Below are positions 15,495-27,288 of a DNA stretch of 64,000 nt, piece by piece. Within the stretch, counting starts at the first letter, position 1. Every line of letters starts with the position of its first letter. The translations under genes were made by a program, and so were the position numbers. Source of the stretch: Bacilli bacterium (GTDB taxonomy: Bacteria; Bacillota_I; Bacilli_A; RF39; UBA660); assembly GCA_017548925.1 (NCBI GenBank), contig JAFYYX010000001.1, positions 280,829-344,828 on the forward strand. Reading direction: 5' to 3'. The notes under the pieces were generated by a model. The model was not told the DNA's origin, ran no database searches, and was given only the letters and a program-made list of their open reading frames with translations.

Positions 15495-15571
15495 GGCGGT
15501 ATTGGTGAAGTGGTTAACACGCTAGATTGTGGCTCTAGTATGCGTGGGTTCGATTCCCACATCCCGCCCCA
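15495..15571 (+). tRNA. tRNA-His (GTG)
   Basis: The anticodon loop gives GTG. An extra G at 15495 (G-1) faces discriminator C73, the histidine identity pair, and CCA is encoded. The acceptor has one mismatch (T5 with C68). It is the last chromosomal feature before the mobile element; whether it served as insertion site is unproven. Confidence 0.93.
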
Positions 15572-15980: not shown

Positions 15981-16024
15981 AAATAACCAATGAAAGAGGT
16001 AACTCTAGAAATGGAGGTACATCT

Positions 16025-16153
16025 ATGATTAAAAACAAACAAAAAATATTTATTTATAATATCGATTATTTAGAGGAGTCAGTAGTACATAGACTTTTAA
16101 GTACTGCTGTCTCCTCTTTTTTTGTAAATCGAAAGGAAATATTAAATGAATAA
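16025..16153 (+). CDS. Leader peptide ORF (42 aa) overlapping an attenuator
   Basis: ATG 16025 lies 9 bp after ATGGAGGT and opens a Lys-rich peptide, MIKNKQKIFIYN..., ending in TAA at 16151-16153. Its stop overlaps the next start (ATGAATAA), so the two are translationally coupled. The terminator-like hairpin at 16073-16123 is wholly inside this ORF, so a translating ribosome would sit over it. The layout resembles leader-peptide attenuation in Gram-positive transposons; the inducing signal is unknown. Confidence 0.55.
   Translation: MIKNKQKIFIYNIDYLEESVVHRLLSTAVSSFFVNRKEILNE
16073..16123 (+). promoter_or_regulatory. Transcription attenuator hairpin
   Basis: GAGGAGTCAGTAGTAC (16073-16088) pairs with GTACTGCTGTCTCCTC (16102-16117) with only one mismatch and one G-U, and is followed by TTTTTTT. 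It is as strong as the terminators at gene ends in this window, yet it lies upstream of the element's genes and inside a translated leader. Confidence 0.75.
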
Positions 16154-16335
16154 GATTAGATTAGATGAAACAATAAATGAGATTTTATATCTAAAACATA
16201 TAAAAAATATTATAGACAGATTATATAAAGAAAAAAGTTTATTAACAGAAGAAGAACACAAGATAATTATTAACGAATGTGATAAAAGAATCCTTAAATG
16301 TGAAAGTGATTATGTAAATAAAAAGGAGGAATACA

Positions 16336-18364
<2,029 letters not shown>

Positions 18365-18373
18365 CCCGCAGAT

Positions 18374-18446
18374 GATTGTATGCTCGCGTACAATCTTCTT
18401 AGAGGGTTAAATAGTTTGGCATCCCAATCTGGGAGCTCATACTATT
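18374..18446 (+). other. Candidate origin of transfer (oriT) upstream of relaxase
   Basis: Two inverted repeats fill the 102-bp gap before the relaxase gene: GATTGTA/TACAATC (18374-18395, loop TGCTCGCG) and AATAGT/ACTATT (18410-18446), the latter enclosing CCC/GGG. MobV relaxases usually nick a hairpin immediately upstream of their own gene. No known nick consensus is recognisable, so this is a positional and structural call. A regulatory role on mob transcription is the alternative. Confidence 0.4.
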
Positions 18447-18466
18447 CTTTTAAAAGGAGATAATAT

Positions 18467-19888
18467 ATGGAAACTTTAGCCTATTCATTTCATCTTGGTA
18501 ATGACGGAAATAAGTCTAGAAAAGCAAAAGCAAAAAGTAAAAATAATTTAAGTGGCACTACTTCTTTTGCAAATAATGCTATTCAAAATTCTCAACAATT
18601 ATCAAAAGTAAGTAATCATGATTTTAGAAAATATGATGGAGATACAGAATATATTTATGGACTTAGAGGAACTAATGATGTTGTATCGGATGTTAAAGAA
18701 TTATATCTAGATATGTTTGAAGAATCTAGAATAGAATATAACTCAAAACAATCAAGAGCTAGTAGAATGATTAATGATTATTTTAAACATGTATCAGATG
18801 ATGAACAAAAAGATTTAGCTTGTGAAATTATAATTGAACTTGGAAATAAAGATTTTTGGGATACAAAGAATCTAGATTATAAACAGAAAATGGTCAATGT
18901 ATTTAATCAACAATTAAAGGATTTAGAACATAAAGTTCCAGACTTTAAAATATGCTCTGCTGTTGTACATTTAGATGAAGGATCACCTCATATGCATGTT
19001 GTAGGAGTTCCAATTAAATATAACAATACTAGAGGAATGAATATTCAAGTGGGTAAGTCTGCAGTCTTTACAAAAGAAAAACTTGAAAAATTACAAGACT
19101 ATATGAGAGAAAAATGTATTAATGCTTATAATGAGGTTTATGGATTAAATGATGAACACAAAGCTGAATTAAAAGAAAAACAAAAAGGTCGAGCATTTAA
19201 TATACACGTTAAAGATATGGCAAACTATAATGAAATAATGAATCAATTAGAAGTGAATAAAAAAAGTATTAAAGAATCAGATGAGTTAGTTGATAAAATT
19301 GATAAAACATCTAAAGAATTAGATGAGATATTCTATGAAATTGAACCAGATGAATTTAATAATTATAAATTAACAGAAAAGCAAATAGTTAGATTTATTG
19401 AATTAAATGATGAAGTTCAAAGAATGGAAGAAGTATTTTTAAGACTAAAAGAAATATATCAAAATATTAATAAAGTAAAAGGTAATGTAGAATATTTAAA
19501 TAAACGAAATAATGAGTTAATTAAGAAAAATGATGAACTAGCTGATATGAATCAAAGATACGAAAGAAAAATAAAAAATTATGAAGGCTCAGAAGAATTA
19601 TTAAAAACATATATCCATACAAAAGATAAAGAACATTTAGAATTAGTTACTTATCTTTGTAAACATGCTAATAGTCAAGACTACACTACTTCTAGATTCT
19701 ATAAACAATTATCTGACGATTTATATCAAAAAGGATTTATCAAAGATAAAGAACATAGTGTTATATTTAATCCTCCTAAAATTATTAATAGATCTGAAAT
19801 AAATAAAGCTATTAATTCTATTAATAAAGAAATGGAAGAAGCTGCAGAAGAATTCTATAAGACAAAATCTGACAATTATAGTATATAA
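18467..19888 (+). CDS. MobV-family relaxase (plasmid recombination/mobilization protein)
   Basis: A 473-aa protein. The signature histidine motif is VVHLDEGSPHMHVVGVP (about residues 166-182), the HxDE...PHxH form of Mob_Pre (MobV) relaxases. The N-terminus (METLAYSFHLGNDGNKS) differs from the usual plasmid Mob opening. The rest, from about 250, is a long coiled coil (EVQRMEEVFLRLKEIYQ, LNKRNNELIKKNDELADMN) for dimerization. It would nick oriT and lead the strand into a recipient using a helper's transfer machine. AAAAGGAGA precedes ATG 18467. Confidence 0.88.
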   Translation: METLAYSFHLGNDGNKSRKAKAKSKNNLSGTTSFANNAIQNSQQLSKVSNHDFRKYDGDTEYIYGLRGTNDVVSDVKELYLDMFEESRIEYNSKQSRASRMINDYFKHVSDDEQKDLACEIIIELGNKDFWDTKNLDYKQKMVNVFNQQLKDLEHKVPDFKICSAVVHLDEGSPHMHVVGVPIKYNNTRGMNIQVGKSAVFTKEKLEKLQDYMREKCINAYNEVYGLNDEHKAELKEKQKGRAFNIHVKDMANYNEIMNQLEVNKKSIKESDELVDKIDKTSKELDEIFYEIEPDEFNNYKLTEKQIVRFIELNDEVQRMEEVFLRLKEIYQNINKVKGNVEYLNKRNNELIKKNDELADMNQRYERKIKNYEGSEELLKTYIHTKDKEHLELVTYLCKHANSQDYTTSRFYKQLSDDLYQKGFIKDKEHSVIFNPPKIINRSEINKAINSINKEMEEAAEEFYKTKSDNYSI

Positions 19889-19941
19889 TATATTATATAA
19901 AGCAATTGTATCTTGTGTTTGTTTTGGATTGGAGGAATACT

Positions 19942-20526
19942 GTGTTACAAGTAAGTAGGAATAATAATTTAAAAATCCCAAAAGAGATAGAAATAACTAC
20001 TAAGAGTGCAAATAATGTAGAAGATATTATTGAAACAAAAAAAGTAATTGCAATAGCTGAAGGTAGAAAATTTAATTCCAAAAAGGAAAAAGAAAAAGCT
20101 GAGGTGGAAGATAACGAAATAAAAATAATAGATAAACTCCCATTTAATGCAAATGATCTAGTTGTAATTACCGTAGTGAAGAAATTATGTGCTTATGTAA
20201 TTACTATAACCGAAAAATCTCCTAAGAAATTTCGAGGAGTTTTTGTTAATAGAATGCAGAATTATTGCTTAGATACGATAGAATATTTATTAAAGGCAAA
20301 TTTTATTAGAATTGATTCTGCTTTAAATAAAGAAAAAAGAGAGAGTTATCAAAGAGAAGCTATTGTTAAACTGAAATTATTGGGTTATGTTTCTATGGTT
20401 GCAGAATCATCAGGTTGTATTTTAACAAGGCAATATAAACAAATTTCAATGCAACTTGCTGAAGCCATTAATCTAATCACGAGTTGGAAGAAAAGTGATG
20501 ATGAGAGATGGAAAAATAAAAATTAG
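19942..20526 (+). CDS. avd: DGR accessory variability determinant (Avd-like four-helix bundle)
   Basis: About 194 aa. Residues from about 75 on match the Avd/S23-like four-helix fold: VVKKLCAYVITITEKSPKKF, then RMQNYCLDTIEYLLKANFIR, then QREAIVKLKLLGYVSMVAE and YKQISMQLAEAINLITSW. Avd forms a basic barrel that binds the reverse transcriptase and the template RNA and is needed for mutagenic retrohoming. The N-terminal 75 residues, Lys/Glu-rich and probably disordered, are an extension over typical Avd proteins (about 120-130 aa). GTG 19942 follows TTGGAGGA by 5 bp. It directly precedes the TR, the standard DGR order. Confidence 0.87.
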   Translation: MLQVSRNNNLKIPKEIEITTKSANNVEDIIETKKVIAIAEGRKFNSKKEKEKAEVEDNEIKIIDKLPFNANDLVVITVVKKLCAYVITITEKSPKKFRGVFVNRMQNYCLDTIEYLLKANFIRIDSALNKEKRESYQREAIVKLKLLGYVSMVAESSGCILTRQYKQISMQLAEAINLITSWKKSDDERWKNKN

Positions 20527-20539
20527 GATTTTAGGTTGA

Positions 20540-20890
20540 AAGGCCTTTAATTAAGGAGAAAATTTGTATTTGTGTCGTTGCGTTTTTTAGAGCCACTCTC
20601 TTGACTCGCGTGCGCGTTGTTAATAACAATGGTAATGATAACAACAACAATGTCAACAATCGTAATAATGGGGCTCGTCCAGATTCACTTTTGAAGGAAT
20701 TAGTTATAATTCAAAAAACAGATCAGAGAAATATATTTTAAGTAAAATATATCAGTATTGTAAGGTGAAGGAATTTTCTTCTTTTCCAATCGCTAACAGA
20801 TTAAATCTTAGTGCGATAGAAAAATAAAAGAACACTCACACAACCAACGGGTTTTAACTCTTTGCGCGTTATAAGGGGTGTTCATTTTAT
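20540..20890 (+). ncRNA. DGR template RNA region (TR plus 3' spacer)
   Basis: The 379-bp gap between avd and the RT gene has no coding signal. It holds the TR (20608-20685) followed by about 200 bp of spacer. In studied DGRs, RNA spanning the avd end, TR and the spacer is the substrate for cDNA synthesis. The 3' spacer has a conserved-looking arm pair, GAACACTC (20829-20836) with GGGTGTTC (20876-20883), enclosing CAACGGGTTTTAAC. The exact RNA ends cannot be read from sequence. Confidence 0.65.
20608..20685 (+). repeat. DGR template repeat (TR)
   Basis: This 78-bp segment aligns without gaps to 22227-22304 (offset 1619). Of its 27 adenines, 14 differ in the VR; of its 51 other bases, none differ. 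Read in the VR's frame, the TR encodes V-R-V-V then Asn-rich codons (12 AAY codons), R and finally N-N-G-A-R-P. AAY codons are the design signature of DGR templates because A-substitution gives many residues without stop codons. The 3' end GGGGCTCGTCCAG is identical in both copies and would be the initiation-of-mutagenic-homology end. Confidence 0.97.
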
Positions 20891-20905
20891 TTGGAGGTAA
20901 ATATT

Positions 20906-21970
20906 ATGAATTTGAGTGAAATATTTTCATTTGAAAATCTATATAGTGCATATAAACATTGTAGAAATTCAAAGCAACATAAAGGGGAGGTTATAAGATT
21001 TGAATCAAATCTTTCCGTTAATATAAGCAATTTAAGCAAGGAATTAATAAATAAAACTTATAAACTTGGTAAGTATAAAAAGTTCTATATCTACGAACCA
21101 AAAGAGAGATTGATTGAAGCCCTACCCTTTAAAGATAGGGTAATGGTTAGATGCTTTTGTGACATTGTTTTAAGAGACAAGATTGAAGTGAAGTTAATAT
21201 ATGATAATTGTGCATGTAGAAAAAATAAAGGGACTACTTTTGCAATTAATCGATTACATATATTTTTAAGAAATGAGTATATGAAGAGTAAAGATAATAA
21301 TATATATTTCTTAAAGTGTGATATTTGTAAATATTTTCCAAGTATAAACCATGATATTTTGATAAGTATGCTACAAAAGATTGACTTTTCCGATGATGAA
21401 ATGTGGATTATGAAAAAACTCATTAAAGAACAACCTGATAATGCAACTAAAGGGCTTCCTTTAGGTAACCAAACAAGTCAATGGTTTGCACTTTTATACC
21501 TAAATGGAGTTGATCATTTTATTAAAGAACAATTAAAAATAAAACATTATGTGAGATATATGGATGATATGATTTTAATACATAAAGATAAAGAATATTT
21601 GTCATTGTGTAAGAAAAAAATAGAAGAATATTGTAACAATATATTAGACCTAGAATTAAACGATAAAACTCAGATAGGGATGACTAAAAATGGTATTGAT
21701 TTTTTGGGATACAGGCATATTATAAATAGTAATGGTAAAATAATAGTAAAATTAAGGCATTCTTCAAAACAACGAATGAAAAAACATCTTAAGACTTTAT
21801 ATAAAATATATAATAATGGACTTGTAGATGATGAATATGTCTATCAAAGAAAAAATGCCTTCTATAATCATATAGAGTGGACTGCTGAAAGTAAAAGATT
21901 AAAAGATGAGGTTTTCCCCTTTGAAGATGATAAAAGCTTTAAATTTGTCCAAAAATATGTTAAAGAATAG
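20906..21970 (+). CDS. DGR reverse transcriptase
   Basis: A 354-aa group-II-intron-related RT of the DGR clade, without maturase or endonuclease domain. Motifs: KCDICKYFPSINHDIL (catalytic Asp), GLPLGNQTSQWFALLYLN (motif 4, where DGR enzymes have SQ in place of the usual SP), YVRYMDDMIL (YMDD active site), and FLGYRH (motif 7). It copies the TR RNA with error at adenines, and the cDNA replaces the VR. GGAGGT fixes ATG 20906. The order avd-TR-RT and the downstream VR gene complete the cassette. Confidence 0.97.
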   Translation: MNLSEIFSFENLYSAYKHCRNSKQHKGEVIRFESNLSVNISNLSKELINKTYKLGKYKKFYIYEPKERLIEALPFKDRVMVRCFCDIVLRDKIEVKLIYDNCACRKNKGTTFAINRLHIFLRNEYMKSKDNNIYFLKCDICKYFPSINHDILISMLQKIDFSDDEMWIMKKLIKEQPDNATKGLPLGNQTSQWFALLYLNGVDHFIKEQLKIKHYVRYMDDMILIHKDKEYLSLCKKKIEEYCNNILDLELNDKTQIGMTKNGIDFLGYRHIINSNGKIIVKLRHSSKQRMKKHLKTLYKIYNNGLVDDEYVYQRKNAFYNHIEWTAESKRLKDEVFPFEDDKSFKFVQKYVKE

Positions 21971-22003
21971 GAATTTATGTTATGATATATATGGTGATTA
22001 TAA

Positions 22004-24160
22004 ATGGATAATATGACTTTATTAACATATGAGCAAATCTTTGGAGATGAGCAATTAGATATAATTAAAAAATATGGAACTAAATGTGCTGTTACGGACT
22101 TTTCTATTCTTTTAGGGAACGCATATTCTAATGATACTTACACTAACGTTGGAGAAGAAACTGAAGATAAAAAGGAAAGAACAGGATGGTGGTGGACAAA
22201 AACTTCTTATCCGGGATATAGTTCAGGCGTGCGCGTTGTTAGTGACAGTGGTTTTGATGACGACTACAGTGTCAGCATTCGTGATGATGGGGCTCGTCCA
22301 GCTTTACCTTACTCATCAATCAAATTAATCGCCTCGAACGAAGTGAGAGGCAAGTTTGATATTAAGGAAGTTGAATATGGAGAATATCCGCAAACAATCG
22401 TTGATGAAACCCTTTCAAAGAAATTAGAAAAGTGTTATAACGAGGATGTTCCATTTGAAATAGATCTAGTAAGAACGGGAAAAGTATATACTACAGATTC
22501 AGTTAACTATGATGAATATGATACTAATTTTGAACCAGTAGAATATGAAGAGTTTGCATACAAAGGTAAAAAATATATTCGAGTTGTTGCCGGTTTTAAT
22601 GGAAATGGTGAAACACTATCTGATGGTAGAGTAATAGAAGACGGTAAACCATATTGGATTTCTGTTGAACCAATAAAATGGTTAGTAGACGAAAAAGCAA
22701 ATGTAGCACTATCAAAAAAGATCCTTTTTTCTGGAGTTCAATTCCAAAATGATACGGAGTATGATGGAGACTTCGATAAAACTGATATAAAGAAATTTAT
22801 GGACGGATATTTTTCAAAAGAAATATGTAGAGCAACTGCACCTCGTATGTTGTTAGATGAAGACGAGTTGTCATCTTATGTACAAGCAGACACAGAATGG
22901 AATCAAGAATCAGAAGAAAGGAAATCAAGATTACAAAGATTAAATCCTGATACTACTAGTCCTCAAGATAGACGAAGAATGACTGATACAGAGATTATTC
23001 ATTCATGGATAGAAGCAGGACAATCAGTATTACTTAGAGGCCCAAGTGGTATTGGTAAAACTGAAAGGATTAAAGCTTTATATCCAAATTTAATATATAT
23101 AAAATTAACGAATAATATGTTTCCAGAAAAAGTTGTGGGTTCCATGAATCTTCAAACTGGGCAAAATATTCCACCTGATTTTGCTAAGCAAGCTTTACTT
23201 GCTTGTGCAACTAATGAGGAAAGAAGATTAATTAGCGAGAATGTCCAAAACCTTTATGATTTAGCTGACGAAATATATGAAAGATCTAAAAACAGCAATG
23301 AAAAGATAGTTATAATGCTAGATGAATTATTAAACGTTAAACCAGCTGTTCAATCATTAGTCTATACTCTAGTTTTAAATAGATTAGTTGAAGCTGGAAA
23401 AGGATTAAAGCTTCCTGCTAATACTGTTATAGTTGCAACGGGTAACCAAAGGAAGTATTCAAGCGTAGCTGAAGATTTAGCAGAACCACTTGAAAAAAGA
23501 TTTGATCACATTTTAGATATGCAACCAAAAGTTGGTGAATGGATAAATGAATATGCAATACCAAATAAAATTCATCCATCAGTAATTGGATATATACTAT
23601 CTAAATATATTCAAAGTGGAAAAAGTGAACATATTTCTGACATGGGTTATTTTTATGAGGAACCTGAAGTGGGAGAAAAGAGATTAGACCAAAATGGTTG
23701 TAAAGGAAGAACTAATGACCCCCGTGGTTGGACATCAATTTCAAATACTCTTTATGCTTTTGAAGAAGATTTAAGAAAAGGTAAATTTATTGGAAAAGAT
23801 GTAGAGCACATGTTAGAGGTATCTATCAATTCTAAACTTCGCGAGGAATGGGCTAGAGAGTTCTTTGATTTTTATAATATACCTACAATGTCAGTTGATG
23901 AAGTTGTTACAGATTCGTTTTCACAAGCTGATTTACCAAGAGACATTAATGAAAGATTTGCTTGTGTAACATCATTATTGCTTGCTGATGAAAATCAAGT
24001 CGGAAAATGTAGAGATTTTATTAGAAAATATTGTGATCCAGAATATTTACAATTATATGATATTTGTTGGGCAGGTAATGATGAAAGAAAAATAATGAGA
24101 ATAACAGAACTTCAAGAAATGACAATGATTAATGAAGAAAGTGCAGGTAAGAGACTATGA
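22004..24160 (+). CDS. DGR-diversified DUF6273/FGE-like domain fused to MoxR-type AAA+ ATPase
   Basis: A 718-aa protein. Residues about 28-110 carry GWWWTKTSYPGYSSG, the VR, and DGARPALPYSS, the end typical of DUF6273/FGE-like (C-type-lectin-fold) domains. Residues 120-290 resemble the usual first half of that domain (VEYGEYPQT, PYWISVEPIKWLVDE, ALSKKILFSGVQF), so the halves appear in swapped order. A charged linker leads to an AAA+ module: Walker A GPSGIGKTE (about 347-355), Walker B IVIMLDELLN, sensor-1 IVATGNQ, and an arginine in PLEKRFDHI, as in MoxR/dynein-related ATPases. No signal peptide or membrane segment, so cytoplasmic. It heads a three-gene operon, with a 4-bp overlap to the next gene. 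Likely a sensor-ATPase with hypervariable ligand face. Confidence 0.85.
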   Translation: MDNMTLLTYEQIFGDEQLDIIKKYGTKCAVTDFSILLGNAYSNDTYTNVGEETEDKKERTGWWWTKTSYPGYSSGVRVVSDSGFDDDYSVSIRDDGARPALPYSSIKLIASNEVRGKFDIKEVEYGEYPQTIVDETLSKKLEKCYNEDVPFEIDLVRTGKVYTTDSVNYDEYDTNFEPVEYEEFAYKGKKYIRVVAGFNGNGETLSDGRVIEDGKPYWISVEPIKWLVDEKANVALSKKILFSGVQFQNDTEYDGDFDKTDIKKFMDGYFSKEICRATAPRMLLDEDELSSYVQADTEWNQESEERKSRLQRLNPDTTSPQDRRRMTDTEIIHSWIEAGQSVLLRGPSGIGKTERIKALYPNLIYIKLTNNMFPEKVVGSMNLQTGQNIPPDFAKQALLACATNEERRLISENVQNLYDLADEIYERSKNSNEKIVIMLDELLNVKPAVQSLVYTLVLNRLVEAGKGLKLPANTVIVATGNQRKYSSVAEDLAEPLEKRFDHILDMQPKVGEWINEYAIPNKIHPSVIGYILSKYIQSGKSEHISDMGYFYEEPEVGEKRLDQNGCKGRTNDPRGWTSISNTLYAFEEDLRKGKFIGKDVEHMLEVSINSKLREEWAREFFDFYNIPTMSVDEVVTDSFSQADLPRDINERFACVTSLLLADENQVGKCRDFIRKYCDPEYLQLYDICWAGNDERKIMRITELQEMTMINEESAGKRL
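22227..22304 (+). repeat. DGR variable repeat (VR) inside the ATPase gene
   Basis: It encodes about residues 75-101 of the ATPase protein. Relative to the TR every Asn codon has changed: to Ser (4), Asp (5), Phe, Tyr and Ile (1 each). The nucleotide changes are 9 A to G, 4 A to T and 1 A to C, the last at 22302 near the repeat end. Outside these bases the copies are identical, showing recent retrohoming or strong constraint. The VR lies in the middle of the N-terminal domain, not at the C-terminus as in most DGR targets. Confidence 0.97.
22331..22351 (+). other. Hairpin just downstream of the VR
   Basis: GCCTC (22331-22335) pairs with GAGGC (22347-22351), 26 bp after the VR end. Several DGRs have a short hairpin or cruciform right after the initiation site that aids target recognition. 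The stem here is only 5 bp with an 11-nt loop, so it is a candidate only. Confidence 0.35.
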
Positions 24161-24546
24161 ATAAAGAGTTAATTGAATTACAAAGAGGTAGTAAAGCTAC
24201 TTGCGTTGTGGTAAAGAATAGTGATTTAAACAAACTTGGAAATGCTGTGCATATGGATTCAAGAATAAATGATTCATGGTTGTTTGGTGCTAAAATGGGT
24301 AATCCAATAATTAAAGAAAAGGTAGATATTGTTTCAAAAAATGGTGAAATAGGGTATTTTGTTATTACTAATTTTGATTCTTTATCAGTTGATGAACAAA
24401 ATAAATATGTTCCAATAATTAAAGATAGAGAACTTCTTGGTTATACATTACCAGATAATATAATAATAGTATTATCTATAGAAAATAAAGAATCATTAAA
24501 AAATATTTCTTCAGAAATTTATCATTTTTGTGTAGTATCAATTTAG
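24157..24546 (+). CDS. Unknown 129-aa protein of the ATPase/VWA operon
   Basis: Not recognised. A small globular-looking protein opening MNKELIELQRGSKATCVVVK, without membrane segment. ATG 24157 overlaps the ATPase stop (ATGA), and the VWA gene starts 10 bp after its stop, so all three are made together. GYFVITNFDSLSVDEQNKY followed by PDNIIIVLSIEN resembles the Walker-B and sensor-1 strands of an AAA core without a P-loop, so it could be a degenerate AAA-like or adaptor subunit; this is weak. Confidence 0.7.
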   Translation: MNKELIELQRGSKATCVVVKNSDLNKLGNAVHMDSRINDSWLFGAKMGNPIIKEKVDIVSKNGEIGYFVITNFDSLSVDEQNKYVPIIKDRELLGYTLPDNIIIVLSIENKESLKNISSEIYHFCVVSI

Positions 24547-24556
24547 GTGATTGTTT

Positions 24557-26026
24557 ATGGATGCAATGACAAAATTACTTTACGAAACTAAACGATTAAT
24601 GATGTTAAGATATCCAAGATTTGCAAGTGAGATAGCATCAGCAAATATTTCCTATAGAACGGATTTAAAATGTCATACTGCGGCAACTGATGGAAAAAAT
24701 ATTTTCTTTGATCCAGAATACTTAGCAGGTTTAAGCGAGGCAGATAGATTATTTCTTATTGCACATGAATTAATGCATATTAAATTTGCTCATGCATTTA
24801 GACTTGAAGATAAAAATGGTGAAAAACGTGATATGGATACATGGAATATAGCAACCGATGCTATAATAAACGCTAATCTTGAAAGAGACGGATTTATTAT
24901 TAAAGAGGGATATGTTAACAGACCTGAAGCTTTGAATTATTCTGCAGAAGAGTTTTATCAATTACTTTTAGAAGAAAAAAAATCTAAAGAACAAGAACAA
25001 CAAAGTAATAGTGATCAAGGCAGTCAAGATAAAAATAGAAGTGAAGATTCACAAGAACAAACTGAGAGTCAAAATAGTAATGGCGAAACTCAACAAGATC
25101 AATCAAACGCTCAAGATGGTGAATCATCAAACGATAAGAATGATGGTGAAGGTCAACAAATCGGTGATGACCATAGTTTATGGGAAGAAGCTTTTGAAAA
25201 AAGAAAAAATGGTGATAAATCTAATGATAATTCTAATAGTTCTCAAAGCGATGATATATCAGCAAATGATGATTTAGAATCTCATAGTTTTGACGAGAAA
25301 GAAGAGTTTGAGAAGAATTATGAGGAAAGAAGAACAAGAGCTAAGGAAAATTTAGAAAGATTAAAGAAAGAGATGTTAACTGATTCAAATTTCTCTGATA
25401 AAACTAATTTAGGTTCAGTTGGTGAAAGCGTTGAAGAATTTGATTGGAGACTTTTATTAAGAAGAGAAGTTGAAAAGACTGAAACAATATGGTCGCAAAG
25501 AAGATCAATAGCAGAAAATAATTACGCTTATCGATTAGAAGAAAACGATATTGATGATGAAGCTGAAACAGAAGTTATGATAGATGTTTCTGGTTCGGTT
25601 GATTTGGATTTGGTTAAAGCATTTTTAAGAATGATAAAGCCAATATTAAAAGAATCAAAATTAAAAGTTGGATGTTTCAATGAAAAGTTTTGGGGTATGA
25701 AGGAAATTAAAAGTGTGAATGACATTGATAATTTTGAAATACCTAGTGGAGCAAGAGGGCACTCTGCATGGACAGAAGACTGGGATTTAGCTGTTAGATC
25801 TTTTACTAAGAAAAGAGAAATAAATAAAATTGTTTTTACGGATGGTGAACCTTGTCCTGGAACTATGCCTAAAGATGATTTAAAAAATGAAAATGTTATT
25901 TGGCTTGTATATGGTAATAGATATTTTAAACCATGCTGTGGTACTGTAATTCAAATTACTTCAAAGCAACTTGAAAGACTATATGATTGTAAAGTTGATG
26001 AAGATGCAAGTAGGAAGATTAGATAA
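24557..26026 (+). CDS. Metallopeptidase-like plus VWA domain protein (DUF2201 type)
   Basis: About 489 aa. The N-terminal domain has LIAHELMHIKFAHAF, an HExxH zinc-peptidase-like motif at about residues 75-80 (DUF2201 N-terminal type). Residues 140-275 are a low-complexity Gln/Ser/Asp/Glu/Asn linker, then a coiled coil. The C-terminal part is VWA-like: TEVMIDVSGSVD is the MIDAS DxSxS motif and IVFTDGEPC its second metal-site element. Such proteins are the classic partners of MoxR ATPases, which remodel them. It probably acts as the effector or substrate receptor of the diversified ATPase. AGGTGA fixes ATG 24557. Confidence 0.87.
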   Translation: MDAMTKLLYETKRLMMLRYPRFASEIASANISYRTDLKCHTAATDGKNIFFDPEYLAGLSEADRLFLIAHELMHIKFAHAFRLEDKNGEKRDMDTWNIATDAIINANLERDGFIIKEGYVNRPEALNYSAEEFYQLLLEEKKSKEQEQQSNSDQGSQDKNRSEDSQEQTESQNSNGETQQDQSNAQDGESSNDKNDGEGQQIGDDHSLWEEAFEKRKNGDKSNDNSNSSQSDDISANDDLESHSFDEKEEFEKNYEERRTRAKENLERLKKEMLTDSNFSDKTNLGSVGESVEEFDWRLLLRREVEKTETIWSQRRSIAENNYAYRLEENDIDDEAETEVMIDVSGSVDLDLVKAFLRMIKPILKESKLKVGCFNEKFWGMKEIKSVNDIDNFEIPSGARGHSAWTEDWDLAVRSFTKKREINKIVFTDGEPCPGTMPKDDLKNENVIWLVYGNRYFKPCCGTVIQITSKQLERLYDCKVDEDASRKIR

Positions 26027-26111
26027 ATATAAAATGTGATAAATGAAATATTAATATTTGGTATATATAATTATAAAGTTGGAAAATCTATACTAAGGTG
26101 AAATATATAAG

Positions 26112-26249
26112 TTGATAATTTATAGATTTTTGTAGTATAATGTTTATAGAAAAATTTTATACTTGTGAAACAAGGTGGAAAGTTTAAAAGTATCTAAATA
26201 AACGCCCCAGATTTGATAATAAAACGAACTATATTAATAGTTCGTTTTT
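26112..26249 (+). ncRNA. Candidate small RNA at right edge of element
   Basis: The 255-bp gap after the VWA gene holds a promoter (TTGATA 26112, TATAAT 26136-26141, 18-bp spacing), a stretch of about 75 bp without ORF, and a perfect terminator hairpin at 26221-26249. The predicted transcript of about 105 nt includes CTTGTGAAACAAG and ATACTT...AAGTAT arms. No known RNA family is recognised. An inverted repeat AAAATCTATA/TATAGATTTT (26083-26130) overlaps the promoter and could be an operator. The right end of the element lies in this region. Confidence 0.4.
26221..26249 (+). terminator. Terminator before GNAT gene
   Basis: AAAACGAACTAT pairs perfectly with ATAGTTCGTTTT around ATTA. It is followed 18 bp later by TATAAT, the -10 element of the GNAT gene's promoter. 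Confidence 0.85.
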
Positions 26250-26281: not shown

Positions 26282-26875
26282 ATGGAAAAGTTTTACCTAG
26301 AAGAACCAACAATGAAAAGAAAACAAGAAGCATATTTATACATTTGTGAACATATTAAGAGTGGTTCTAATATTAATGGCTCTGGTAGTTTAGATAAATA
26401 CATAGATAATTATGAAGGATGGCTAAAAAAACTAGAGCATGATAAAACTAGAATACCAGATGAATATAAAGTACCATCATTAACATATTTTTTAATTAGA
26501 GAAAATGATGATAAAATTATCGGAATGATTAATATAAGACTTACTTTAAATGAATTTTTAAGCAAATATGGTGGACATATTGGTTATGGTATTAGGCCAT
26601 CAGAAAGAGGAAAAGGTTATAATAAAATCAATTTATATTTAGGCCTTCAAGTATGTGATAAACATGGCATAGATGTTGTATTTATGGATGCTGATTTAGA
26701 TAATCCTGCATCATGGAAAACAATGGAAGCTCTAGGTGGAGTAAGAGTAAGACAGTATTTTGAAGAAATAGATCAAACTGAAACTGTTGATTATAATATT
26801 AATGTAAAGGAATCATTAGAAAAATATAAAGATATATATGAACCTTATATAAGTGAAGAAAGGATTAGAAGGTGA
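26282..26875 (+). CDS. GNAT acetyltransferase
   Basis: A 197-aa acetyltransferase. The acetyl-CoA-binding segment is GYGIRPSERGKGYNKINL (R/QxxGxG form), followed by VVFMDADLDNPASWKTMEALGG, the usual Asn-containing helix. IGMINIRLTLNEFL is the strand before the substrate site. Substrate unknown; similar proteins are annotated as putative antibiotic or amine acetylases. It is the first chromosomal gene right of the element and probably heads an operon with the zinc-ribbon and SDR genes (overlapping or adjacent starts). Confidence 0.85.
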   Translation: MEKFYLEEPTMKRKQEAYLYICEHIKSGSNINGSGSLDKYIDNYEGWLKKLEHDKTRIPDEYKVPSLTYFLIRENDDKIIGMINIRLTLNEFLSKYGGHIGYGIRPSERGKGYNKINLYLGLQVCDKHGIDVVFMDADLDNPASWKTMEALGGVRVRQYFEEIDQTETVDYNINVKESLEKYKDIYEPYISEERIRR

Positions 26876-26880
26876 GTAAT

Positions 26881-27288
26881 ATGAGTGGTGGATTTATGAT
26901 ATTTTTTATAGTTGGAATAGCTTTATTTATATTTATTTTTACATATGTAATGATGATAATGTTTAGTCCAAAAGCTAGATCAAAAATTATAGCAAGACAA
27001 GTTAAATCTTTAAGAGGAGCAACAGATATGTCTAAAGATGACATTGAAGAAATGTTAACTAACTTATCTGGTGCTTCAATAAATTCTAAAAAAAGAATTT
27101 TAGATGAAAATGAAGATACACTTAAAGATATTAAGGACGCTGAAGCAAGAATAAATAAAGATGCTATTAAAGAAACTGCTGGAGCAGTTAAAGAAGGTTT
27201 ATTTGGTTCAACAGTTTATTGTAAACACTGTGGTAAACAAATCGATAAAGATAGTAAATACTGTAAGCATTGTGGTGGAGAACTATAA
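26881..27288 (+). CDS. Membrane-anchored zinc-ribbon protein
   Basis: About 135 aa. One N-terminal transmembrane helix (IFFIVGIALFIFIFTYVMMI), a helical charged middle, and a C-terminal double-CxxC zinc ribbon (YCKHCGKQ...YCKHCGGEL). AAGGTGAG fixes ATG 26881 over GTG 26872. Its stop TAA shares a base with the next ATG. Function unknown; such proteins are common and often regulate or scaffold membrane processes. Confidence 0.75.
   Translation: MSGGFMIFFIVGIALFIFIFTYVMMIMFSPKARSKIIARQVKSLRGATDMSKDDIEEMLTNLSGASINSKKRILDENEDTLKDIKDAEARINKDAIKETAGAVKEGLFGSTVYCKHCGKQIDKDSKYCKHCGGEL

What the first reader, a model, noticed from the sequence alone, without database searches (positions are those of the whole stretch)
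20608..20685. TR designed as a run of AAY codons
Read in the VR frame, the TR has 12 Asn codons (AAC/AAT) in 18 positions and no codon that becomes a stop by A changes at the first two positions. Each AAY codon reaches 15 amino acids, so 12 sites give a theoretical repertoire of about 15 to the 12th. Current VR has Ser, Asp, Phe, Tyr and Ile there, with Ser and Asp dominating.
Basis: seen in the sequence. Interest (0 to 1): 0.55.

Follow-up and report, generated by a model that had tools for sequence, protein, structure and literature searches.

The report
Mobile gene-diversifier with asparagine-codon template
A gut bacterium carries, on a small mobile element, a known kind of gene-diversifying machine whose template is built mostly of asparagine codons, so that it can rewrite the front part of an ATPase without creating stop codons; several sister elements break that rule.

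Summary
The stretch is the template repeat (TR) of a diversity-generating retroelement (DGR). TR 20608-20681 and VR 22227-22300 differ at 13 sites, all TR adenines. In the VR frame 12 of 16 consecutive codons (not 18) are AAC/AAT, and no codon can become a stop. Two sheep-gut genomes carry the same element (99% identical over 9.1 kb, 92-93% over its last 1.2 kb). Their TR differs at one non-A base, which the VR mirrors, while the VR differs at 20-21 of 74 sites. So the VR is rewritten from the TR.

The AAY logic is already in print. The setting is less ordinary. The VR lies near the N-terminus of a MoxR/McrB-like AAA+ ATPase, followed by a conserved 129-aa protein and a vWA protein with HExxH. 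These sit with Avd and RT on a serine-recombinase/Mob element at the 3' end of tRNA-His. I infer a diversified sensor driving an ATPase-vWA switch, perhaps defence; this is untested.

Boldest lead, from relatives: 10 of 17 distinct TRs in this clade hold in-frame stop codons (0 of 59 other DGR pairs), and 5 of 11 VRs made from them are nonsense. The window TR is one of two of 17 without any stop-capable codon.

The parts
15496..15571 (+). tRNA-His (GTG); its 3' end is the attachment site
   Evidence: ARAGORN, Rfam tRNA
15565..15571 (+). attL core CGCCCCA
   Evidence: same 7-mer at both ends; a 10,692-bp sheep MAG contig starts and ends exactly here
16454..18364 (+). large serine recombinase
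   Evidence: Pfam Resolvase 5e-33 + Recombinase 2e-14; PHROG integrase 3e-99
18467..19888 (+). MobV-type relaxase
   Evidence: Pfam Mob_Pre 4e-15, above cut-off; NCBIfam MobV 43 bits, below its cut-off of 100
19942..20526 (+). Avd accessory protein (GTG start after GGAGG; open frame from 19906)
   Evidence: PHROG Avd 4e-17, NCBIfam DivGenRetAVD 1e-7 and Pfam bAvd 2e-5, both below their cut-offs; start by eye
20608..20685 (+). template repeat (TR); 20608-20681 matches the VR at every non-A base, GATT at 20682-20685 against GCTT in the VR
20622..20669 (+). 16-codon core with 12 AAY codons
20906..21970 (+). DGR reverse transcriptase (ATG after GGAGG; open frame from 20891); GNQTSQ and YMDD motifs
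   Evidence: PHROG RT 1e-106, RVT_1 2e-18, motifs
22004..24160 (+). target gene: N-terminal DUF6273-like variable domain + AAA_5 (MoxR/McrB-like) ATPase, 718 aa
22227..22300 (+). variable repeat (VR), target residues 75-99
22331..22351 (+). hairpin downstream of VR: stem 22331-22335 / 22347-22351, loop GAACGAAGTGA
   Evidence: covariation in 10 sequences
24157..24546 (+). 129-aa protein of unknown family, conserved between target and vWA gene
   Evidence: relatives in most trio loci; no hit in Pfam, NCBIfam, PHROGs, PADLOC
24551..26026 (+). DUF2201_N putative metallopeptidase + vWA-like domain (HELMH, DVSGS)
   Evidence: Pfam DUF2201_N 8e-24; HExxH in 43 of 44 and DxSxS in 44 of 44 related ORFs
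26203..26209 (+). attR core CGCCCCA, right end of the element

Best explanation
The stretch is the template repeat of an Avd-type diversity-generating retroelement carried by a ~10.6-kb mobilizable element in tRNA-His. Shown from sequence: the TR is copied into the VR with changes at adenines only; the TR is nearly all AAY in the VR frame, so each site can reach 15 residues and no stop; three copies of the element have different VRs over a nearly constant TR. By homology: RT and Avd make the error-prone cDNA and a hairpin 3' of the VR marks the target. Inferred: the variable patch is the ligand-binding face of a DUF6273-like (C-type-lectin-like) domain at the N-terminus of a MoxR/McrB-like AAA+ ATPase; ligand binding alters the ATPase, which remodels the downstream vWA/HExxH partner (NorQ-NorD style), as an evolvable sensor-effector switch, most plausibly against invading elements or phages.
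For: DGR: TR/VR A-only differences; Avd and RT profiles, RT motifs. Rewriting: window vs L032 20 of 74 VR sites differ against 42 in the rest of 16004-24899, TR differs at 1 site; window vs L033 21 against 54; the one TR difference (20611) is a non-A base and is mirrored at VR 22230. One TR serving two VRs in L036, L037, L039, L042. Hairpin: 98% of cells paired, 3 of 5 pairs with changes on both sides, 0 of 500 shuffles reach the covariation score. Element: att cores, tRNA-His, empty-type site in a same-genus genome G094, exact att-to-att contig. Target: AAA_5, Foldseek best match NorQ of a NorQD complex E 1.9e-5 and McrB 4.1e-5, VIA Z 9.6 (McrB, rmsd 3.6, 158 aligned) and 9.3 (NorQ, rmsd 3.5, 122 aligned); vWA/HExxH partner conserved.
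Against: No expression, cDNA or read-level data. The lectin fold is only hinted at: DUF6273 E 6e-4, below cut-off, in 5 of 22 members at E<=1; the N-terminal model alone has pLDDT 69 and no PDB match (best Foldseek E 0.18, best VIA Z 3.2). PADLOC has only a weak hit for the target (DolB 1.8e-6) and none for the vWA or 129-aa proteins. A defence role is inference. No VMAP protein or known effector domain beside the trio was found in the element.
Confidence: 0.9

Rival explanations
1. The element is a fossil: a once-active DGR whose VR now drifts or is inherited unchanged.
For: Only three close copies are known and all are assembled genomes; decayed relatives exist (L197/L223 has an RT with 9 stops and a non-A TR/VR change; L078's RT has 1 stop).
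Against: RT, Avd and target are open; TR/VR agree at every non-A base in all three copies; VRs of the three copies differ while flanks are 99% identical; a non-A change is shared by TR and VR.
Confidence: 0.07
2. The Ser/Asp-rich VR reflects selection on the sensor, not enzyme bias.
For: In 22 clade pairs (184 AAY codons) Asp 58 vs 41.7 and Ser 22 vs 14.0 expected from base frequencies; Cys 7 vs 42.0 in all 81 pairs; one-hit codons 124 vs 104. In the window VR 11 of 12 AAY codons have exactly one hit.
Against: A->G dominates and yields Ser and Asp directly. In the 59 other DGR pairs Tyr, not Asp, leads (127 of 553), and a reconstituted BPP-1 DGR already shows context bias in cDNA (Tyr, Ser, Asp for AAC; Gly, Asp for AAU; PMC12875486, passages). 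Pairs are related, so tests are descriptive.
Confidence: 0.35
3. The diversified ATPase serves something other than defence, e.g. regulation, maintenance of the element, or recognition of a host or diet molecule.
For: No defence-library support beyond a weak ATPase hit; the trio exists in many loci without a detected RT.
Against: DGR-diversified lectin domains tied to MoxR/vWA or AAA ATPases are interpreted as conflict systems elsewhere (PMC7159879 and PMC10907252, passages).
Confidence: 0.4

Closest known systems
BPP-1 DGR (Bordetella phage; PMC3240598, PMC12875486, passages)
   Same: Order avd-TR-RT, A-specific TR-to-VR transfer, AAY-rich TR, TR/VR 3' mismatch, hairpin 3' of VR
   Different: Target is a phage tail protein with the VR near its C-terminus (partly recalled); its hairpin has a 7-10 bp stem with a 4-nt GRNA loop, here 5 bp with an 11-nt GAACGNAGNGA loop; here on a mobilizable element, target an ATPase
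Phage tentaclin and Faecalibacterium prophage DGR targets with DUF6273 (PMC10743442, PMC11792537, passages)
   Same: VR in a DUF6273-like domain, AAC/AAT TR giving 15 residues; tentaclins also have the DUF6273 domain N-terminal
   Different: Phage receptor-binding or decoration proteins, no ATPase, no vWA partner
MoxR-vWA ternary conflict systems with DGR (PMC7159879, PMC10907252, passages)
   Same: DGR-diversified lectin-type domain coupled to a MoxR-like ATPase and a vWA protein
   Different: There the lectin domain is usually fused to the vWA protein or a separate target next to the ATPase, with a VMAP or effector protein; here it is fused to the ATPase, N-terminally, and no VMAP was found
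CLec-AAA ATPase DGR targets of CPR bacteria (mentioned in PMC10907252; primary paper not seen)
   Same: Variable lectin-type domain and AAA ATPase in one protein
   Different: [quoted passage not shown] here the VR precedes the ATPase
NorQ-NorD / CbbQ MoxR ATPase-vWA pairs
   Same: ATPase fold match and an adjacent vWA partner gene
   Different: No variable domain; partner here also carries an HExxH motif

Membership tests
Diversity-generating retroelement | TR/VR pair differing only at TR adenines | tested here: met
   13 of 13 core mismatches at A
Diversity-generating retroelement | dedicated RT next to the TR | tested here: met
   phrog_1423 1e-106, GNQTSQ and YMDD; that GxxxSQ marks DGR RTs is recalled
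Diversity-generating retroelement | accessory Avd protein | tested here: met
   PHROG Avd 4e-17; NCBIfam and Pfam Avd models hit below their cut-offs
Diversity-generating retroelement | fixed TR/VR difference at the 3' end (IMH*/IMH) and hairpin 3' of VR | tested here: met
   GATT vs GCTT; covarying hairpin
Diversity-generating retroelement | VR diversity in nature | tested here: met
   three copies, three VRs; assembled genomes only, no reads
C-type-lectin variable domain | CLec fold of the VR domain | tested here: inconclusive
   DUF6273 E 6e-4 below cut-off, 5 of 22 members; model of residues 1-290 weak and without PDB match
MoxR-clade AAA+ | AAA_5-type P-loop ATPase with vWA partner gene | tested here: met
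MoxR-clade AAA+ | clade-specific insert in helix 2 | not tested
   McrB matches as well as NorQ, so the sub-clade is open
VMAP ternary conflict system | third conserved protein VMAP | tested here: inconclusive
   the only third protein is a 129-aa ORF without a family hit; no VMAP model was searched by name
Integrative mobilizable element | integrase, relaxase, defined att ends, empty site | tested here: met
   G094 lacks the element and also two flanking genes, so its site is near-empty, not exact
Integrative mobilizable element | transfer between cells | not testable with these tools
   99% identical block in three genomes suggests it; not shown

The most novel reading that the evidence does not exclude
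In the RT clade of this element the template is not always stop-proof: its TR evolves in-frame stop codons at two main sites (and one further site), so each retrohoming event either switches the target ATPase off or, by mutating the stop, inserts residues including Trp, which AAY codons cannot give. The DGR would then be a random on/off switch plus diversifier, with the window element as the stop-free, always-on form.
Probability: 0.3. Interest if true: 0.75.

Novelty: new variant of a known kind. Interest (0 to 1): 0.45.

Why it matters
The AAY template itself is textbook DGR design. The locus matters because it puts a diversified recognition domain directly on an ATPase of the MoxR/McrB type, in tiny-genome gut Bacilli and on a mobile element, whereas the DGR-MoxR systems I could read about put it on the vWA protein or a separate target and describe multicellular bacteria. 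The relatives' stop-bearing templates contradict the general statement that DGR codon choice prevents nonsense (PMC10907252), and make a simple test possible: do populations of these bacteria contain a large, regenerated fraction of null targets?

Tried and rejected
N-terminal domain as a solved fold: sequence and structure searches found none; the alone-folded model is weak, so this is not evidence of a new fold. More copies of this exact TR/VR in IMG/VR: 0 matches. A second target in the own genome: none. Fossil element: rejected as main reading (see rivals). Recoding of stops as an explanation of TR stops: all three stop codons occur (TAA in 7, TAG in 1, TGA in 2 of the 10 TRs), so no single reassignment explains them; I did not test suppressor tRNAs. 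Decay as an explanation of TR stops: possible; L223's RT is decayed and L078's has one stop, and two other VRs (L036 at 2704, L075) are broken by frameshifts without any TR stop, so assembly error or decay may contribute; but RTs are open in L049, L054, L188, L192 and L217 and their targets are open apart from the single VR stop. The 59-pair comparison set is 50 viral-contig pairs and 9 pairs from genome loci, with frames chosen by AAY count, not by ORF; 9 loci were dropped from it as ordinary repeats, and pairs without a clear frame were dropped too. A false start: one search crashed before output and was rerun; one search stopped with an error after its main tables. Residue statistics treat related sequences as independent.

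Full report
What was checked. Over the 74-nt core every one of 13 mismatches lies at a TR adenine (9 A->G, 4 A->T). In the frame of the target ORF (22004-24160) the mutable stretch is 16 codons, 12 of them AAC or AAT; the other frames have none, 100,000 shuffles reach at most 9, and nothing outside the TR in the window exceeds 8. No codon can turn into a stop.

The machine. Upstream lies an Avd homologue (PHROG 4e-17; below cut-off in NCBIfam and Pfam), downstream the RT (PHROG 1e-106; GNQTSQ and YMDD), then the target. The TR ends ...CCAGATT and the VR ...CCAGCTT, a difference that recurs in relatives, like IMH*/IMH of BPP-1. Just 3' of the VR is a hairpin: in 10 distinct relatives 98% of pair cells are paired, 3 of 5 pairs change on both sides, and 0 of 500 shuffles reach the covariation score; the loop GAACGNAGNGA is conserved. 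Four other sequences of a more distant sub-clade (L056, L059, L060, L081) have a different hairpin and were left out. BPP-1 needs such a hairpin (PMC3240598, passages).

It works in nature. Two sheep-gut MAGs (L032, jejunum; L033, rumen) carry the same block: 99.1% and 99.0% identity over 9,079 aligned bases, then 93.2% and 92.4% over about 1.2 kb. Window vs L032: 20 differences in the 74-nt VR, 42 in the rest of 16004-24899, 1 in the TR. Window vs L033: 21, 54 and 1. The single TR difference (20611, T/C) is not an A, and the VR shows the same change at 22230, which is what copying from TR to VR predicts.

Residue spectrum. In 22 clade TR/VR pairs with 184 AAY codons the VR residues are D58 N32 S22 Y21 and nine others; in 59 other DGR pairs (553 codons) Y127 S77 N77 D67 G57 and others. 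A codon has exactly one hit more often than independence predicts (clade 124 vs 104; others 323 vs 289), and Cys is rare (7 vs 42 in all 81 pairs). In the window all but one AAY codon has exactly one hit. So the repertoire is large but not uniform: about 8 effective residues per site. Pairs are related, so these are descriptive figures.

The carrier. tRNA-His (15496-15571) ends in CGCCCCA, repeated at 26203-26209. In G094, of the same genus, tRNA-His is followed by DNA matching window 27284 onward, without the element and without two small flanking genes. In the L033 genome (G194) the element also sits at tRNA-His, with other flanks. The L032 contig (10,692 bp) starts and ends exactly at the core, with a 9-base terminal overlap: either an excised circle or an assembly break at the repeats. 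With a serine recombinase and a Mob_Pre relaxase this is a mobilizable element. The RT clade is local: 10 of 384 other genomes sampled in the order, all of the same family, and 0 of 391 others sampled in the phylum at E<=1e-100; 4 of 4 same-genus genomes examined lack it.

The target. The ATPase part (325-500) matches NorQ, McrB and CbbQ. The N-terminal part hits DUF6273 weakly; DUF6273-like variable domains are reported as lectin-like in phages (PMC10743442, passages), but my own structure test is inconclusive. A 129-aa protein and a DUF2201_N/vWA protein follow in the window, and relatives of both follow or flank the target in many loci; HExxH is present in 43 of 44 vWA ORFs of at least 350 aa and DxSxS in 44 of 44. 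Many of these loci show no RT or Avd match, some because the contig ends. My mechanism - variable sensor, ATPase, vWA/HExxH effector - is inference by analogy with MoxR-vWA pairs.

The exception in relatives. Reading 17 distinct clade TRs over the same 16 codons: 10 hold an in-frame stop (5 at codon 2, 4 at codon 8, 1 at codon 13). Eleven VRs come from these: 5 still have a stop (L049, L054, L188, L217, L192), 5 have sense codons (Trp, Trp, Ser, Cys, Tyr), and one (L223, decayed RT) reads Arg with a non-A change. In the five null targets the rest of the frame is open for 572-670 codons beyond the VR. None of 59 other DGR pairs has a TR or VR stop (Fisher 2e-8 against pairs, 3e-7 against 43 TR clusters). 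Stop sites 2 and 8 are places where other clade TRs carry aromatic codons (TAT at 2; TGG or TAC at 8). The window TR (12 AAY) and L229 (11 AAY) are the only 2 of 17 with no stop-capable codon. I found no report of natural TR stop codons: full-text searches 'diversity-generating retroelement' + 'template repeat' + 'stop codon' (6 papers) and + 'nonsense' (4 papers); I saw passages of five of these papers, not whole texts, and most subscription papers are not held.

Papers. Passages only were seen of PMC7159879, PMC10907252, PMC12875486, PMC3240598, PMC3521204, PMC4372165, PMC10743442 and PMC11792537; PMC8144416 was searched by terms (ATPase, AAA, MoxR, DUF6273, stop codon, conflict) with no occurrence. 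Searches for DGR with 'integrative and mobilizable' gave 0 papers and with 'AAA ATPase' + 'lectin' 1.

Noticed in passing
L049, L054, L188, L192, L217 (VR stops); L004, L035, L053, L078, L089, L223 (TR stops only): In-frame stop codons templated in the TR of relatives; five targets are null by one VR stop in an otherwise open frame.
   Followed up: yes
L032 6224-6301 and L033 6224-6301: L032's 11 VR mutations are a strict subset of L033's 16, same bases, no conflicts; among the 66 VR pairs with like TRs compared, no other shows this nested pattern (other pairs are identical, or conflict). Stepwise mutation without a fresh TR copy, partial repair, or assembly mixing could explain it.
   Followed up: partly
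window 24900-26209 against L032/L033: Identity drops from 99% to 92-93% inside the vWA gene, as if its 3' part had been exchanged with another allele.
   Followed up: no
L032 contig JAFWMN010000016.1 (10,692 bp): Contig is exactly the element from att core to att core with a 9-base overlap, perhaps a circular form.
   Followed up: partly
all 81 TR/VR pairs: AAY codons have exactly one hit more often than independence predicts, and Cys is six-fold under-represented.
   Followed up: partly
window 24157-24546: 129-aa protein of no known family, conserved with the ATPase-vWA pair in most trio loci.
   Followed up: no
L036 2704, L075 6209: VRs broken by a frameshift rather than a stop: indel by the DGR, or assembly error.
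   Followed up: no
window 26282-27288: GNAT and zinc-ribbon genes right of the element are missing in G094, although the tRNA-His side and the SDR gene are shared.
   Followed up: no
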